Of a stretch of 64,000 nucleotides of DNA, positions 21,912-54,348 are shown piece after piece. Both the position numbers and the translations under genes were made by a program. The DNA comes from Cristatella mucedo (lineage: Eukaryota > Bryozoa > Phylactolaemata > Cristatellidae). Positions within the stretch are counted from its first letter, which is position 1. Each line of letters begins with the position of its first letter. The DNA lies in the NCBI GenBank assembly GCA_009760855.2, contig WPIO01000228.1, positions 62,001 to 126,000 on the forward strand, given 5' to 3'. The notes beneath the pieces are model-generated. The model was given only the letters and a program-made list of their open reading frames with translations. It searched no databases and was not told where the DNA came from.

Positions 21912-22111
21912 ATAAAAATTGATCGTCTGAACCAAACATCCATCAATCTCTCGTGATATCTGATTGTTAGACTACGGTAGTAAATGGGAAATCGGAAATT
22001 TAATAATCGATATAAAAATTGATCGTCTGAACCAAACATCCATCAATCTCTCGTGATATCTGATTGTTAGACTACGGTAGTAAATGGGAAATCGGAAATT
22101 CAATAATCGAT
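21912..22111 (+). repeat. 100-bp tandem duplication
   Basis: Two nearly identical 100-bp units, 21912-22011 and 22012-22111, each start ATAAAAATTGATCGTCTG and end AATAATCGAT. The second unit runs directly into the truncated LINE copy. The copies differ at only about one position (TTTAATAATC versus TTCAATAATC), so the duplication is recent. Confidence 0.95.
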
Positions 22112-23221
22112 ACCATTGAAAGCTGTCACCGCTATGCAGATGACACTCAGCTGTACCTTTGCTTTGATCCCTCTCAGCCTTCGAGCACGTCGAATTCTCT
22201 CAACTCCCTTGCTGTATGTATTGATGACATCCGCACATGGATGTCAGCAAATTTTCTTAAATTAAATGATGATAAAACTAACTTACTAGCTATGGGCAAA
22301 CCCAGTTTGATTCAGAAATTGGAAAGGCTAACGCTCAAACTCGGCTCTGCCAGCATATCTCCAGTTGAATCTGCCCGAAATATATGTGTCATGTTCCAAG
22401 GTGACCTTTTGTTAGATGACGACATCAGCTCCACAATCAAGTCTGCCTACTTTCAGCTACAAAACATTGCTAAAATTCGGGCTTGTTTAGATAAGGATAC
22501 CAAATCCAAGTTGGTCACTGCATTTGTGACATCCCATCCCGTCTTGACTTCTGTAACTCTCTGCTTGCTGGCCTACCGGCATGTGCGATCAGGTGCTTAC
22601 AGCTGGTGCAAAACTGCAGCTAGGCTTGTCTGTCGTGAGCATTGCAGTTGCCACATCACACCACTTCTCGCCGACCTGCACTAGCTACCAGTCAAACAAC
22701 GGATCGACTTCAAGGTTTTGTCGCTCACTTTTAGGTCTCTTCATTCTCTGGCTACCTATCAGATGTACTCCCCCACCAGGCCAAGCATCGTACCACCCGC
22801 TTTTTGGAAACTAACTGTTTACCAATACCTCGTTCAGACCTCAAATCCTTTGGAGACCGTGCATTTAGTTCGCATACTCCCAAAGCTTGGAACTCAATCC
22901 CGACTTGCGTAACAGCATCCCCTGACTTGGCCAAACACATTTAAAAGAAATTTAAAATGCACCTATTTTATGACAGTATTTAGTGGGTCCCTGTGATTCG
23001 TTCTGTATGTACTTATGCGTGCTGACACTGTTGCATACTGCCACTAACCACACTTGCATGCTGACCTTGTGCATGTCACCCCTAACCATGTTATTCATAT
23101 TGTTTATCGAGCATGCTACCACTCACCATTTAATCGTGCTTCCTTTGCAGCAAATGTAAAGCGCCAAGAAAGAGACTGAGTTCTCTGAGGGGGCTTTATC
23201 AAATGCATTATTATTATTATT
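22112..23221 (+). mobile_element. LINE family A (CR1/L2-like) 5'-truncated copy
   Basis: The largest single-copy reverse-transcriptase C-terminal region here runs from the catalytic box CHRYADDTQLYLCFDPS through WMSANFLKLNDDKTNLL and ITPLLADLH, broken by a stop at 22682-22684. It then continues with LSLTFRSLHSLA in another frame. The 3' UTR ends with the stem AAAGCGCC...GGGGCTTTAT and ATTATTATTATT. It lacks endonuclease and N-terminal RT, is inactive, and is probably a truncated retrotransposition product. Confidence 0.92.
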
Positions 23222-38755: not shown

Positions 38756-41700
38756 ATGTCGCGGCGGAAATTAAAAGCCTTGGGCTATTCCGAACAGAAG
38801 ACATTCGAAATTAACGGTAGCGTTGTGCAACCCCTATGCTATCGTGTGTGTGCTACAGGTCGATATCGGCATCGATAGACGGCGTTATTTTTCTGAAAGT
38901 CAAGGCTTTTGGCCTGCTCTTCTTTGCCAAGCTGCGTACAGTTACAGGAGTGGGTAATAATTCATGAGCTCACGTTACATTGACTCATAGTAGGTTTTCT
39001 GAGCCTGTCTCGACCATCTCGTTGCCTCTCTTGCATAGTCCGCTGTCAAGTCAAGTCACTGCATCCTGTTGGTATTATATTTATACAAGTTCTGTTAGGC
39101 TTGTGCGTAGCAACAGTTGAAGATTAGAACGACGTAAGGGAAGCAGCACGTTTTATTACGCTCGATTTATCTATCGTTTTGTGCGAAGCCACTGCCTGTC
39201 GCGGCACATGCATATATGCACAAGTTGTATTATGCTTATGCGTAGTTGCAGTTGAACCCGAAGCTGAACTTGACTTGAGTTCGAAATAGCGTTGAACTGC
39301 AGGTTCAACTATCAAGAAAAACACCAATTTCTTTATTTCTCTGTAGCGCTGCAATATCCGTTGGGCGGTATGAGGCTGTAGAAATCCTTTTGACGGTTCG
39401 GCCACAATTGCATTTGTTTTTATTATGAAGACAAATTATCTATGAGTATCGCTCCACTCATAAATAGGTCTTGCATTTAAGGCTTGGAAAAGCTCAGCAT
39501 TTCTTGATCCTATCAGTCTCACAAGGCTGTAGCAAAACGTGGCCGTGGCACGTGTGTTCATGCAAATGCACGTGTACACTTACACACGCGGTCTCGACTT
39601 CCCGACGTTAGATGTCGAGGAACAATAAAGTTAGCTCTCGCCTGATGCCTTTTAAAGTGCAGTTAGGGTTGGATGGCGGGTTGTATGGGAACAACAGCCA
39701 CAGTCTGCTCGTTGCCGTAATGATACTGAGTATCTCTCCGATGGGATGTTCGCGATTGCATCTATCCATGTCAAGCCGACTTTGGTCGCCAGCTCGTGTT
39801 ATGGTGCCATTGGATTGCACCAAGCCATCATTAGCTCTCTTCCTCAACTCTTTTGCTATCCGTGCTCCCTACACTTTGGCATGAAATACCGTGGGACATT
39901 CTCCGGCCTGGTTTGGCCCGGAGCAAGGTTAAAGCAAAACCGGCAGGTGCCGGTGTCTAACAATCCGACGTGCATTGCTATCCAAGCTGCCCATGCATTG
40001 CTACGGCTGCCACCTTGGGAGCCCAAAGGAAAATTCTCTGCTGCTAGTTTTGTTTTGTGGGCGTCTTTCTTCGGTATGGCCGTTTTGAAAAGAGAACACT
40101 TTTACATGAAGTAGAAAGTAGCCAAGTAAACAGCCTCATCACTGCAGCTGCAGAAGAGCCCCGTTGGCTTTTTCGAGCTTGCAGTGGTTAGTGAGAAATC
40201 CTGCTGCCGCATTGCACGAACCCACGACATGGGCCGTGAAGGGCCGACATCTTACTATAGGGCTTATATTGGCCGGCGGATAGCCAAGCCAAGTCTAAGC
40301 ACTTGCCCAGTCTTTCGAGTCGTTGCAGTGGTGAGATGTGCCAGGTCACGTCATCTGCTTCAGCGCTTGCTGCGTGCTGTGCCTCCTCACGTTTGCTGTG
40401 CTGTACGTTTCAGACGAGGCTCAGTATCGGAGCCTCGTTGCCTGGTTAGAAGACCAGAAAGTCAGGCAACTGAAAATCGAAGAGCGTGGGCCGCTTCGAG
40501 ACTTGGATAGCGCCACCTGGCCAGCGGTGTACGGCAAGGTACTGCACGGCAGGTCGTGGCAGACCGACCTGCGAGCTCATTGGTGGCCATTTCCTTTTGT
40601 TTTTTTATGAGACCTCTCGACATGAAAAGCAGGCCGCTAGGCCGTGCTGTGCATAAGCTCTGCAATCATCTAGAGCAGCGGTTCTCAACCTGTAGGTCGC
40701 CACCCCTTTGGGGGGGGGGTCAAACGACCCTTTCACAGGGGTCGCCTACGACCATTGGAAAACACGCACTTCCACATTTTGCACACAATAATTGTATGGC
40801 TGGGGGTCGCCACAACATGAGGAACTGTGTTAAAGGGTGCTTTCGGCCACGATGTGTGTTCGGCTCCGGTACGGTGTGCTTCCGGCCACGGTGAGCACTG
40901 TGCTGCTATGTCCCATTTAATTGACAGAGCCGTGATTTTCGGGTTATCTTGTTCTTGCTATGACATGTTGTAGCAAATGTTTGATGTTTTATTGAGAGTG
41001 ATGAGTGGGCTCTGCTCTCAGGTGATATGCTCTCAGGTGATCTCATTCGACATGAGCACGGTAGAAGCGGCACATTTATCTGAAATTTCTTGTCTCGGTG
41101 AACCCAGTGGATCACAGCAGCAATTCAATAATGACAGTAATATTAAAACGTGTATAGTATTCTAAGAGAATTAATTCTTTTTCTAGGCACCAAATAGGTT
41201 TTGGAAGGCAGCATGTCGATGATTAGTGATAATATGCAAGTTTCTGCATGCACAAGCACATAAAGGACAGCTGATACCCACAGAGCAGATGCTGTGAAGA
41301 ATATGTTTTTTTTTTACTTCTTTCTAAATGAATAGTCAGAGGATGTTGTGATGTCAGTCATGCTTTGGTGGGAGCAGTATGAGCTGACAGCACAGTCTCC
41401 ACACGATTTGAGGTTGGCAAGATGCACCACTATATGACATGTCATCAGAGCTTGTGGTACGATGTGATGCATCACTGAGAAGTATTTTGCGATAGGTGGG
41501 CCGCAGCTTATGAAGGGACCTGAAATGAGCAACATGAAAAAATTGATGAACTGAGCAGCAGAAACTTGAAGTCGATACCCTGTTTGATGGGGAATCTTGG
41601 TGTGTACAATTTTATTTAAGCAATAATTTATAAAGTTAATAATCTCTTAATAAACAGACATGAAATCGGCCCAAGGGTAGCAGCGTTACTTTCTTCGTTG

Positions 41701-43075
41701 TGATGAGCTTTCAGTTGCTTTGGTTGGACAAGTTTTTGCCCTGAACAATGCATGACACCCGAAATACCGACCCCTTTCTTGAGGCAGCAGCTGAAATCAA
41801 ATGGACTCATGGATCACCGAATGCCTTCTCCTTTCGATCAATGGATCACCGAAGGCCTTCGCCTTAAGCAGCCTTGATTCATGCAAGCTCTGCTGTCGTT
41901 TTTCTCTCGACAACTTTTTTGGAAATTAAGGGGAACAAGGAGGCAACTTAGTGCAGACAATGAAATCGTGACGTTACGAGGACCCTTGCATTGGACCCGA
42001 CTCACGAGTCAGAGAGAGCCGTATCGAAACGTCGCGACTCATCCGATGTATCTGCTTTAAGGCATTTATGGTCTCGGACATGCTGTAGCTCACATTGTCT
42101 GCTGCTGTTGTAGTACTTATCCGAACTGAAGTGTCCTCTACCGTCATCCGACCGTGCCGGCTGTCTGGAGTGGCTGCTCGGCTTGGCCATCAGGCTGGAA
42201 TATTCTGACAACGCAGAGAAATACCGGTCCGTGGAACCGAAACCGGCGACCCCGGCCGAGGCAAAGTCTGTTGGTGGCCGACCGAGCTCTGCCGGCAGAA
42301 ATCCTCTGGCCGACCTGGATTGTGAGTGGCGACCTGTGCAGACCCAGCTGCCACCGGCGTGCCACAAGCGGTTGGCCGTCGTTTAATAATAATACTAAAA
42401 CTACATTTGTTATAGCATCCTCAGAGAACTCAATCTCTTTCTAGGCACTTCACATTTGCTGTAAAGGAAGCACGATCGAATAGTCAATGGTAGCATGCTC
42501 ATTGACAACGAGCGTAGCATGGTTAGAGGTGCCATGCATAGGTCGCATGCAAATATCGTTAGTGGCAACATGCGCAGTGTCAGCATGCATAAGCACACTA
42601 AGGACGGATCACGTGGACCCACTTAATGCTGTAATAAGTAGATTTACCTGCTTGCTGCTCGTTTGCATGCAGCGGGCACTCACCGTCCTTCAAACCTGCA
42701 GGATTCGGGGGTGGGGGCTTGAGCGTGCAGCCCATAGAGGCGTGCTCAGATGCAGCCAGAGCCTATCTCACACGATGCTACACGCATAACTCGCCAGCCT
42801 TGCCCTTTTGGCTGGTCACGTGGCGATGAGGATTAGGACAGCATTTAGTGGGTCCCTGTGATTCGTCCTTGATGTGCTTATGCGTGCTGACACTGTGCAT
42901 GCTGCCACTAACCACATTTGCATGCTGACCCTGTGCATGTCACCCCTAACCATATTATTCATTTCGTTTGTTTTTCAAGAATGATTTTACTTACCATTCA
43001 ATTGCATTTCACTTTACAGCAAATGTAAAGCGCCTAGAGAGAGATTAAGTTCTCTGAGGGCGCTTTATCAAGTGA

Positions 43076-43110
<35 letters not shown>

Positions 43111-46100
43111 GAGAACCAGCCTGCCGTAGGTACGAGTGCGTAAAGGCAGGTTCAAACGGTCGGTGTCTACCTGCTCGTGGTCGTGCTCCGATCTTGCTTT
43201 TGTCTTTGCGAACACGTCACCAAGACTGGGGCGGTAGTGAGGGGGGCACGTGAGAGACAGGCTGCCTGAACAAGATTCAGTCACTCAGTGCTGTTGAAGG
43301 GCAGGTCGCAGCAAAGAGTGCAGCTTTTGTTTCATTTAGTGTCGTGAGAAGACGCTAGAGCACCAGAGCTCGGCCAGCCAGTGCCCTGCCGACGGTCTTC
43401 GATGGGGCGTGTAGGCTGTAGGCTTTTCGTCAGACTCGGTCGCTCCCATCCATCGGGCCCGGTCGGTGGTCGGAGGCCTCCCACTGGATACAGTCAGTCC
43501 GCCTGCGCGACTGTCGTCGCCGCTGCAGCAGCAGCTCTGCCTGCTCGCTGTGCCACTTGACCGCTGCAATGCAGCAGTGCTTTGGACTCGGTGGTGCTTG
43601 AACGTCATGTTTTCTTCCCACGCTTCCTTGCCAGCTTGGCATTCAGTCTCGGTCTTCTTGGGGCATCCGCCATTGTGTTGAGCCACACCGTGCCAGATGT
43701 GCTGCTGCTGCTGCTCTTTCAGACCAGAGTGCCGAATTCAAGGCGGCCGTGACGTCGCTGCAGTGCCTCCTGCAGCTGCCCGCGCATCCGGACCACCTCG
43801 AGTTGTTGAAGGTAAAGCCGTTGCGCAGGCGCTGCTCGTACGATAAGGATGGCTATATGCAGCCGCTTGCGGAATAGCCTGCGGAGCGAGGAGTATAGGG
43901 CGATGGATTTCACAGTCTCACTGGCATGGTAGCAGGAAACTTTCGGCGGCTTTCACTTCGAGCTTGCAGCAGAAAATCAAGAACTACCCTCTGCAGAACT
44001 GGAAGCCTAGACACGTGTCTCAAAGCGCCAGCACCTTACCGCTGGGCAAAGACCCTTATGCTAGCCATTTAGAGCTCCGTCACACGTGGACTGGTGTTAC
44101 CATTCTCTGCTCACCAGTCTCTGCACACAGCTTAGCACTGCAGCAGCCTGCTTGTTAGGGAATGCCTGCCCGCGTTTGCTTGTATGTCTTTATTTGCTTT
44201 GCTTGTATGCATTTGCGTGCACACCTGTCTCTGTTGCATTTTATGTGTTGTGTGTGTGTGTGTGTGTGTGTGGATTTTTTTTAGCTGCACATGCTCCAAA
44301 AACAGGTTATCCAAGTACCTAGGATTTCTATGGTGCAGAAAACTGTTACTTGCTGTGCGTTTTATCAGCCTTCTTGTAGCAAATCACATGCTAAGATTCC
44401 CGTGTTGTGAGCTTTCTTGGAGTCCCTCTGGCATTGGAAGCCTTGCATGTACCTGTGTGAAGCATCCAGTCGCTCTGTGCTTGTGCTTTGCCTGCATCGG
44501 TCGCTCGCTACAAGTATGAATATAGTGGGATGTAAAGTGCAAAGAAAGAGATGTAGTTCTCCTAGGGTGCTATATACATCTTTTATTATATGTTATTATT
44601 ATTACTGCTCACGACTATTGTGGGCTGGCTTCATAGGCAGCGTGTTCAATCCCTGAGGACGGCACGACGAATCCTTTCCTTTCAAGCACTGCGCCATCCC
44701 TTGGGGGGGGGGTGTGTTGAATCTCATTAAAACGCGGCAGACAGGTCAGCCAATGCTGCTGCTACATCTGCTATTTCTGTCACTTTATTTCTATCACTTG
44801 ATCACCTCTATCACTTTAAAGATTCAAGGAGCTTGGTTTTTGCTATCTACTGGCGCCGCAATGTACGTCTCGTAAGTATCTTGTAGCTGCTACCGTCCTC
44901 TGTCTGTCACGTCTCGAAGTATCTCCGAAGGTCCTCCTCTCCCTGCTGCACTCGCTGTGCTGCTGCTGTACATGTGATTTGGTCGAGCTACATGCTCGCT
45001 CCGATCGAGCGGCAGCGGTGCGAGTAGGTTGCCGATCCCAAAGTAGCTGGCGGGTGGCGATGCAGCAGTGCTGTGGCTTTCTCAAGGTCGGTTCTGTCTC
45101 CCCAAAGCGACGCCGTGGACCGGGTGGCGCTGGCTTTCCATCTGCGGCATTATCCTCAGTTTGTCATAAGGACATTCTGCCCTGCGAAACCCTCTGCATG
45201 ACAGCGTGGTACTTGCAAGGAGCGAAACCCTCCGCATGACAGTGTGGTACTTGCAAGGAGCCAAGGTCTCAACTGATGTCGTTACACACTTGCAGGCCGT
45301 CAATCTGCTGGTGCAAGAGCGGCTTTCGAAGGACAGGAAACCATCGGCAGCAGCATCAACTGCTGCTGGTAGTGCTGCACCGGCGACGCTGAGTCTCAAG
45401 ACTATCGATGCCGGCATCGACACCGGCGGTAAGTGCCAACTGAAGCATGTGTGGCGTACGACATGAACCAGGTTGGGCCACTGTGCTCGGCGCTGCAAAG
45501 TTGTCCCTCGTGCAGCCATCTGTTCTATAGGTTTTCCTTTAGTGTTACCCTTTACCTTTACCTTTTTTAATGTGTCCGGTCTTTTTGCTCACTGGCGCTG
45601 AACTACGGTCTCCACCTGGCTAAGATACCCTACGAGGCTGCCGGACACCTAGAGAAGCCGCTTAAGAGGGGGGGAGGGGAGGTTGATGGACTTTGCCTTA
45701 GAGGAAATCGGTGTTACAAGCATAGTCTTGGAATATTTTTTTTACTGGAAAGGGTTTGAGCATAGATTAGCAGTTGAATTCTGATTAGGCCACCAATCAT
45801 CAAGCTACCTACCCTGTTGGGTCCACCGACTTGCCTAGCCACTGCCCTCTTCCGGTCGAGAACAGCTGACCCACTTTTGGGTAAGCTCAGTAACTGATCA
45901 GCTAGCACGGTGCTACGGCTGTCTGAGCCGTATTTTGCTGTATGCGACTGCTCGCACAAATCCAACATACCCTGTCGAGTGAAAGTGGCACTGCAGCTCT
46001 CACAACTGTTGGCATTCTCAGTATGAAGCCGCACTGGTTCATCTTTGCTAGATATGTCAGGCAGCTGCTGCAGTTGCACAAACTTAGTCAGATGCCAGGT

Positions 46101-52800: not shown

Positions 52801-54348
52801 CTGATAAGTGAACGGACATCGTTCATGTACCTAAAACGGTGTGTGCAATGTAATACTGCAGGCTCACTTCAAGTAAACATCGTCTGCTCATGTCACACAT
52901 AACGGCAAGCATACACATGCGACCGGCTGCTAAGAGCTTGTTGGCCCAGCCACCCAACAAAGCCACAACCAGCCAGTCACCGAAAAGCTTCGGCCGGACG
53001 ACCGACCAGCAAAATACGAATGGCATGCAGAAGCGACCTACCTGATTTTCATGTCTCGCACGGCGTCTTTATCGGCGATGAATCTTAACCAAGGAAGCGT
53101 GCCGGAGTACCACTGAAGCAGGCAGTAGCCCAGGATCTCGATGTCACCTCTGCGAGACGGTTCTGAAGAGGAAATGTCGTGCAAGCGTGCTCACAGTGAG
53201 TCCAGTAAAGGCTACTGGCACACGAGCCACAATCAACTGCTGGCTTCTTGAGCAACGGCGCAGACAGCACGACGATTTCACACTGCCGATTACTTTACGA
53301 CAGCAAAGGACGATTTCCCCTCCACCAGCTCGGCTATACGACCTAACTGAGTGTACGAGAGTAAACAAACAATGCTGACATACAAGGTATGCTGAGTGAG
53401 CTGTCGAACAATCTAGAGCGGTGTGTGGGGGACAAGTTCGAGCGATCGAGTTACGATGAAGAAGAGCACTTCAAAAAACGTGTCTGAGATGAACTGACAT
53501 CAGCTTCGCGAGAGAGATAGTGGGAAGATTATCCGTGAAGCAGCTGTTCCTACAGAGCTATTTGGAGGGACCCACTACGCAGCTCCTCGGGGGGGGGGGA
53601 GGCCCCCAAGGAGCCACATAAAGTACTGACAGCTCCGATAGCAAAATAATAATAGTACCTAATATCTAATACCTCGTGCCACACCAACAAGAGCACCTAA
53701 TAGCAATGCACAACCACTCAGACTCATAGCAGCTGTTGCCCCGAGGTAGGATAAATCTTTTCACAAGACAAGCACAGGTATTCTTCGGCGTAGAGTCAAT
53801 GGAACGCTTACGTAACCGCTATATGAATGAGGTGAGATACCGAATACCAGCAAGGCATTCCAACGAGAGCATATTTCTTATCAAGCTCCTACTAGCTCGA
53901 AGTAATTCGCTGGCACTAGCCTGTATGCAGCTGTACGTCACCAGGCCAGTATCGCTAACACTGACGAAGGCAAAACATGGGATTGAAATCATGGCCGACA
54001 TTAGCTTTGCTGGCAGCAATGGGTAGGAGTAGCCGTTCCACTTACTCACTCCTTTGTGGGCGTCCCTACTTGTGAAGTCAACAGTCCCGTCATGCGCTTT
54101 CCTAGGGTCTTCTTTGTATTCGTGGTGAGAAGTGTCCAACTGAAACTTGCTTGCCAAGCCATAATCAACCAGATACACATGCTGCGGGATTGGCTGCCCA
54201 TCAACAAGCAAGATATTGGAGGCCTTAATGTCGGCGTGGACATAGCCGTTACTATGAATGTACTCCAAGGCATCCAGCTACAACGAAGCACGGTATTATT
54301 TCATTCAAAATCCGTTATTTATACATCAGTTCACACATTCATGAGCAC

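What the first reader, a model, noticed from the sequence alone, without database searches (positions are those of the whole stretch)
40676..40835. SPIN-like hAT MITE in an RTRAF intron of an apparently invertebrate genome
The terminal CAGCGGTTCTCAACCTG, the CCCTTTCACAGGGG palindrome and the ACAACATGAGGAACTG block match the SPIN/OposCharlie family. That family is known for repeated horizontal transfer among tetrapods and a few invertebrates. A long G run suggests some age, and the 3' terminal repeat has been lost or replaced.
Basis: partly seen in the sequence, partly recalled or inferred. Interest (0 to 1): 0.72.

Follow-up and report, generated by a model that had tools for sequence, protein, structure and literature searches.

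The report
SPIN-type jumping-gene remnant in invertebrate intron
A short dead copy of a jumping gene, almost identical in its ends to one known for leaping between vertebrates, lies in a gene of an unnamed invertebrate whose genome holds many more copies, which suggests that invertebrate too was invaded from outside.

Summary
Window 40676-40838 (+) is a 163-bp, 3'-truncated copy of a hAT MITE, about 140 bp past an RTRAF exon. The host genome (572 Mb, 688 contigs) holds a real family: 2049 first-look candidates, 40 scored, 40 of 40 matching (one is the window copy), on 30 contigs, which argues against contamination. The 40 copies give a 187-bp consensus with CAGCGGTTCTCAACC termini and an 8-bp target duplication, nTCTAGAn, exact in 11 of 40. 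An internal 67-mer of that recall, absent from the window copy, found longer SPIN forms: 40 of 40 scored match, of 87 candidates. SPIN membership is well supported, and horizontal transfer is the best explanation. No database consensus was available. No autonomous partner was found at 70 hAT transposase loci. This is a probable new host for a known kind, not a new kind.

The parts
40668..40675 (+). 5' half of the target site duplication (ATCTAGAG, fits nTCTAGAn)
   Evidence: family target-site counts (T at position 4 in 36 of 40, A at position 5 in 38 of 40)
40676..40838 (+). SPIN-type hAT MITE, 3'-truncated (consensus positions 1-158 of 187), 6 transitions and 3 transversions from the family consensus
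40676..40690 (+). 5' terminal inverted repeat, CAGCGGTTCTCAACC
   Evidence: in the consensus, 14 of 15 positions match the 3' end reverse-complemented
40710..40719 (+). G run lengthened from 5 to 10
40728..40741 (+). subterminal palindrome CCCTTTCACAGGGG
40812..40827 (+). conserved 3' subterminal block ACAACATGAGGAACTG
40413..40538 (+). RTRAF exon upstream of the intron that holds the element (donor GT at 40539)
42132..42284 (+). next RTRAF coding piece found downstream (approximate bounds)

Best explanation
It is a dead, non-autonomous copy of a SPIN-type hAT transposon. Inferred history: an autonomous SPIN element entered this invertebrate lineage from outside. Non-autonomous derivatives (an abundant 187-bp form and rarer, longer forms) were mobilised in trans by its transposase, which recognised the CAGCGGTTCTCAACC termini, cut and pasted them into nTCTAGAn targets and left 8-bp duplications. 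One copy landed in an RTRAF intron, then lost its last 29 bp including the 3' terminal repeat, so it should no longer move and is presumably spliced out with the intron. Shown here: the anatomy, the target site, the family and several internal forms. Inferred: the transposase in trans, the entry by horizontal transfer and its direction.
For: Family in the host genome: 40 of 40 scored match (one is the window copy), 2049 candidates, 30 contigs. Consensus of 40 copies with exact 8-bp duplications in 11 of 40 and at least 7 of 8 in 26 of 40. Outer blocks 85 of 85 and 80 of 81 identical to the recalled tetrapod-type sequence. That recall was typed before other copies were seen, and it equals the family consensus at 9 of the 12 positions where the window copy departs from it. 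The recalled internal 67-mer found 40 of 40 scored matches at 85-93%. In 14 fetched copies the 3' region gives a majority sequence identical to the recall in 128 of 132 columns, the differences being one 3-bp gap and one substitution. Copies diverge from their consensus by a mean K2P of 0.064.
Against: The reference is recalled, not from a database. Upstream of those 132 columns the longer copies carry internal sequence that my recalled sequence lacks. No transposase with these ends was found at 70 hAT loci, so no coding sequence could be compared. The 40 copies are the scored 40 of 2049 candidates, which may bias divergence downward.
Confidence: 0.88

Rival explanations
1. An old hAT family of this host lineage, inherited vertically, that merely shares SPIN-like ends.
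For: hAT ends are short and conserved, other hAT families abound in this genome, and no autonomous SPIN copy was found.
Against: The likeness covers 166 outer bases with one difference and 132 columns of the longer copies with one substitution and one 3-bp gap, all apparently non-coding. Such DNA should not stay that similar since the split of vertebrates and invertebrates (established reasoning; the reference is recalled).
Confidence: 0.06
2. Vertebrate DNA contaminating the assembly.
For: SPIN is recorded in vertebrates (PMC11008031 and PMC11614815, passages read).
Against: 40 of 40 scored candidates match, on 30 contigs, the longest 24.8 Mb. The window copy sits between RTRAF exons of an invertebrate-like gene. 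The copies share their own internal junction.
Confidence: 0.01
3. The OC1 (OposCharlie1) hAT family rather than SPIN.
For: OC1 too has recorded transfers among tetrapods and Rhodnius (PMC3621081 and PMC11614815, passages read).
Against: The sequence that predicted both the consensus and the longer copies was one recalled as SPIN/URR1. No OC1 sequence was available to compare.
Confidence: 0.04
4. The intronic copy has been co-opted, for example as a splicing or regulatory element of RTRAF.
For: It lies about 140 bp from a splice donor in sense orientation, and the single strand folds better than most shuffles (z -2.49; 3 of 200 shuffles as good).
Against: It has drifted about as much as the other copies (K2P 0.060 over 158 columns against a family mean of 0.064), and folding is expected of SPIN's palindromes.
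Confidence: 0.01

Closest known systems
SPIN (SPACE INVADERS) hAT MITEs of tetrapods, including rodent URR1-type elements (sequence recalled)
   Same: Outer 166 bases with one difference; terminus; target nTCTAGAn (the SPIN preference is recalled); 132 columns of longer copies with one substitution and one 3-bp gap.
   Different: The abundant 187-bp form has its own internal junction. The longer copies carry upstream internal sequence absent from my recalled sequence. The host is an invertebrate.
SPIN in the bug Rhodnius prolixus (PMC11614815, passages read)
   Same: SPIN MITEs in an invertebrate, explained by horizontal transfer.
   Different: This genome gave no Chitin_bind_4 match, which argues weakly against an arthropod. 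No Rhodnius sequence was compared.
SPIN-like hAT of the snail Biomphalaria glabrata, about 1,000 copies, no intact transposases detected (PMC5440852, passages read)
   Same: High-copy SPIN-like hAT in an invertebrate, without an intact transposase found.
   Different: Sequences not compared. The GC of the genome sample here, 46%, is higher than I recall for that snail.

Membership tests
SPIN (hAT, Buster group) | Terminal inverted repeats CAGCGGTTCTCAACC / GGTTGAGAACCACTG | tested here: met
   Consensus of 40 copies. The window copy has the 5' repeat only. Motif recalled.
SPIN (hAT, Buster group) | 8-bp target duplication with TA in the middle, nTCTAGAn preferred | tested here: met
   11 of 40 exact, 26 of 40 with at least 7 of 8; T at position 4 in 36 of 40, A at position 5 in 38 of 40. 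The window copy itself has no 3' partner. Preference recalled.
SPIN (hAT, Buster group) | Subterminal and internal non-coding sequence near-identical to tetrapod SPIN | tested here: met
SPIN (hAT, Buster group) | Autonomous partner encoding a hAT transposase with the same ends | tested here: inconclusive
   None of 70 hAT transposase loci examined carries the ends: 30 with about 1.5 kb on each side, 20 in 6.2-7 kb stretches, 20 with 0.9 kb on the 3' side only. Of 138 PF05699 matches, 68 were not examined. PF14291 did not complete.
SPIN (hAT, Buster group) | Transposon divergence below host-gene divergence, patchy distribution | not testable with these tools
   No vertebrate or named invertebrate genome was on hand; the own genome 'has no relatives here'.
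OC1 (OposCharlie1) | Near-identity to the OC1 consensus | not tested
   No OC1 sequence on hand

The most novel reading that the evidence does not exclude
An invertebrate lineage outside arthropods and the known snails was invaded by SPIN, carries the 187-bp form in perhaps 2,000 copies plus longer forms close to the tetrapod sequence, and may belong to the chain of hosts (reservoir or vector) that linked the vertebrate invasions.
Probability: 0.3. Interest if true: 0.7.

Novelty: new member of a known kind. Interest (0 to 1): 0.5.

Why it matters
Invertebrate hosts of SPIN are few in the papers I could search, and which animals carried it between vertebrates is an open question. A dense, datable SPIN population in another invertebrate adds a node to that network. 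If the host is a parasite of vertebrates, it becomes a candidate go-between.

Tried and rejected
Tick as host: my first guess from base composition. It is not supported: 0 matches for tick histamine-binding PF02098 and 0 for Chitin_bind_4 PF00379. Both searches rang in no control genome, so they are weak, and the tick idea is dropped rather than disproved.

The young hAT family as autonomous partner: rejected. Its termini read TAGGGCTGTACCGGATTTGA, not SPIN.

Two longer copies (L111, L121) with another upstream sequence as possible autonomous elements: I fetched their upstream (L125, L126). In L125 the SPIN ends lie at 2447 and 2928, so the element is about 482 bp, and L126 likewise has the 5' end at 2124. 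It is a further non-autonomous form; there is no room for a transposase.

Collections: SPIN-like patterns gave 0 matches in viral contigs and genome contigs; the element gave none in phages. No tRNA and no Rfam match in the window. Nine paper searches listed nothing that I recognised as SPIN in ticks or in a host I could equate with this one; the listings are cut at 15 to 25 rows. Searching papers for the motif letters found none. The founding SPIN papers are not held.

A 23-bp self-match at 44692-44713 is a G run in unrelated sequence. Weak end-like hits at L050 and L056 (E 0.57 and 0.16) were taken as chance.

Errors in my notes, corrected here: notes 3 and 4 say about 24 bp lost and 10 exact duplications. 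The calls show 29 bp and 11.

Full report
What is there. In the ungapped blocks, 131 of 143 positions are identical.

Where it is. It lies in sense orientation in an intron of RTRAF, about 140 bp past the donor at 40539. RTRAF pieces were found with a recalled human probe: three strong ones (E about 1e-12 to 1e-11) and three weak ones in the right order (E 0.005, 0.19 and 3.2). Pfam PF10036 confirms the three strong pieces; the 23-residue first piece gave no family. PDB chain 9i8v_E matches the last piece. The six pieces are 45 to 76% identical to the human probe, too low for a vertebrate by my knowledge of this conserved protein.

Is it a family. The window is part of contig C142 of a 572-Mb genome in 688 contigs. 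The first look gave 2049 candidates; 40 were scored and 40 of 40 matched, one being the window copy itself and the best other copy 90% identical. I fetched all 40. They lie on 30 contigs. Their majority consensus is 187 bp, equal to the start probe I had read off the first eight copies; the copies were aligned to that probe, so the two are not independent. Exact 8-bp duplications flank 11 of 40, and at least 7 of 8 bases agree in 26 of 40. The target reads nTCTAGAn, with T at position 4 in 36 of 40 and A at position 5 in 38 of 40. All 39 other matches to the 261-base query end at its positions 197-200, so the sequence after 40838 is not part of the family.

The window copy. It matches consensus positions 1-158 with 6 transitions and 3 transversions (K2P 0.060), plus 5 extra G in the G run. 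The last 29 bp, with the 3' terminal repeat, are gone, and no such repeat lies in 40839-41800. It should no longer be mobile (inference).

Is it SPIN. The consensus shares its first 85 bases and 80 of its last 81 with the recalled sequence. That sequence was typed, before any other copy was fetched. At the 12 positions where the window copy differs from it, the family consensus sides with the recalled sequence at 9 and with the window copy at 3. A second check used a 67-base internal part that the window copy lacks: 87 candidates, 40 scored, 40 of 40 matching at 85 to 93%. Of these 40, I fetched 14. Their last stretch gives a majority equal to the recalled sequence in 128 of 132 columns, the rest being a 3-bp gap and one substitution. 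Upstream of it they carry internal sequence that my recalled sequence lacks, and by eye in more than one form. One of them, L111, lies in an element of about 482 bp with SPIN ends on both sides (L125, 2447-2928) and no transposase; L121 has its 5' end likewise (L126, 2124). Memory could be at fault about the species label, but not easily about a sequence that predicts unseen copies.

Age. The mean K2P from the consensus is 0.064, median 0.059, and 0.054 outside CpG (the window copy's row there, 0.112, is inflated by its replaced end). The 40 are the scored part of 2049 candidates, so the true mean may be higher. For the longer copies, the mean over 14 is 0.115; without three whose 3' end is replaced (L115, L116, L119) it is 0.073 over 11, by hand from the rows. 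The host's substitution rate is unknown. At an assumed 1e-9 to 1e-8 per site and year, 0.06 means 6 to 60 million years, which overlaps the 15 to 45 million years given for such transfers in PMC3621081 (passages read).

Autonomous partner. PF05699 found 138 matches among 150 scored of 766 candidates. 63 of them form one tight group (69 bits or more, against 45 or less for the rest). In the 30 fetched loci of that group, all 29 others share pieces of at least 99% identity with L020. Frames of 635-642 codons are open at several places, and the termini are not SPIN: another, recently active hAT family. None of 70 hAT loci (254,396 bases) carries SPIN ends. Of these, 30 were read with about 1.5 kb on each side, 20 in stretches of 6.2-7 kb and 20 with 0.9 kb on the 3' side only; 68 of 138 matches were not examined. 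The partner may be extinct, as no intact transposase was detected for DNA elements in Biomphalaria (PMC5440852, passages read), or simply not reached.

Host. GC of a 139-kb sample of hAT loci is 46%. PF02098 and PF00379 gave no match. Since arthropods carry many Chitin_bind_4 genes (my knowledge), the second result points away from arthropods, but no control rang, so it is only a hint.

Known ground. SPIN is recorded in squamates (PMC11008031) and, from tetrapods, in Rhodnius (PMC11614815), and a SPIN-like hAT in Biomphalaria (PMC5440852), all from passages read; Lymnaea is recalled. This is therefore a known kind in what is probably a further invertebrate host. My nine searches (listed under tried and rejected) showed no such report, but most subscription papers are not held.

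Noticed in passing
L009-L038 (G000): A young hAT family unrelated to SPIN by its ends: 63 of 138 PF05699 matches in one tight score group, 29 of 29 other fetched copies sharing pieces of at least 99% identity with L020, open frames of about 640 codons at several places, termini TAGGGCTGTACCGGATTTGA. Probably active recently; L046 and L047 also hold pieces of it.
   Followed up: partly
L125 2447-2928 and L126 from 2124: A further non-autonomous SPIN form of about 482 bp with its own internal sequence; the 5' parts of the two copies are 78% identical over 274 bp.
   Followed up: partly
L115 and L116: Two longer SPIN copies on different contigs (C653, C468) share nearly the same element and flanks, including the same replaced 3' end: perhaps a segmental duplication or haplotype contig.
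   Followed up: no
window 40835-40899: At the broken end of the element an imperfect direct repeat of about 39 bp period begins (19 of 26 compared bases alike), perhaps a trace of how the 3' end was lost.
   Followed up: no
window 53819-54277 (-): Exon of a protein kinase (PF00069, E 3.3e-10) that looks like a VRK by its motif (name recalled).
   Followed up: no
window 21912-22112 and 22064-22684 (+): A 99% identical 100-bp tandem duplication overlaps a reverse transcriptase fragment (PF00078, E 0.00037, below cut-off); similar L2/CR1-like pieces seem to lie near 57.9 and 62.6 kb on the minus strand, without a Pfam match (LINE type recalled).
   Followed up: no
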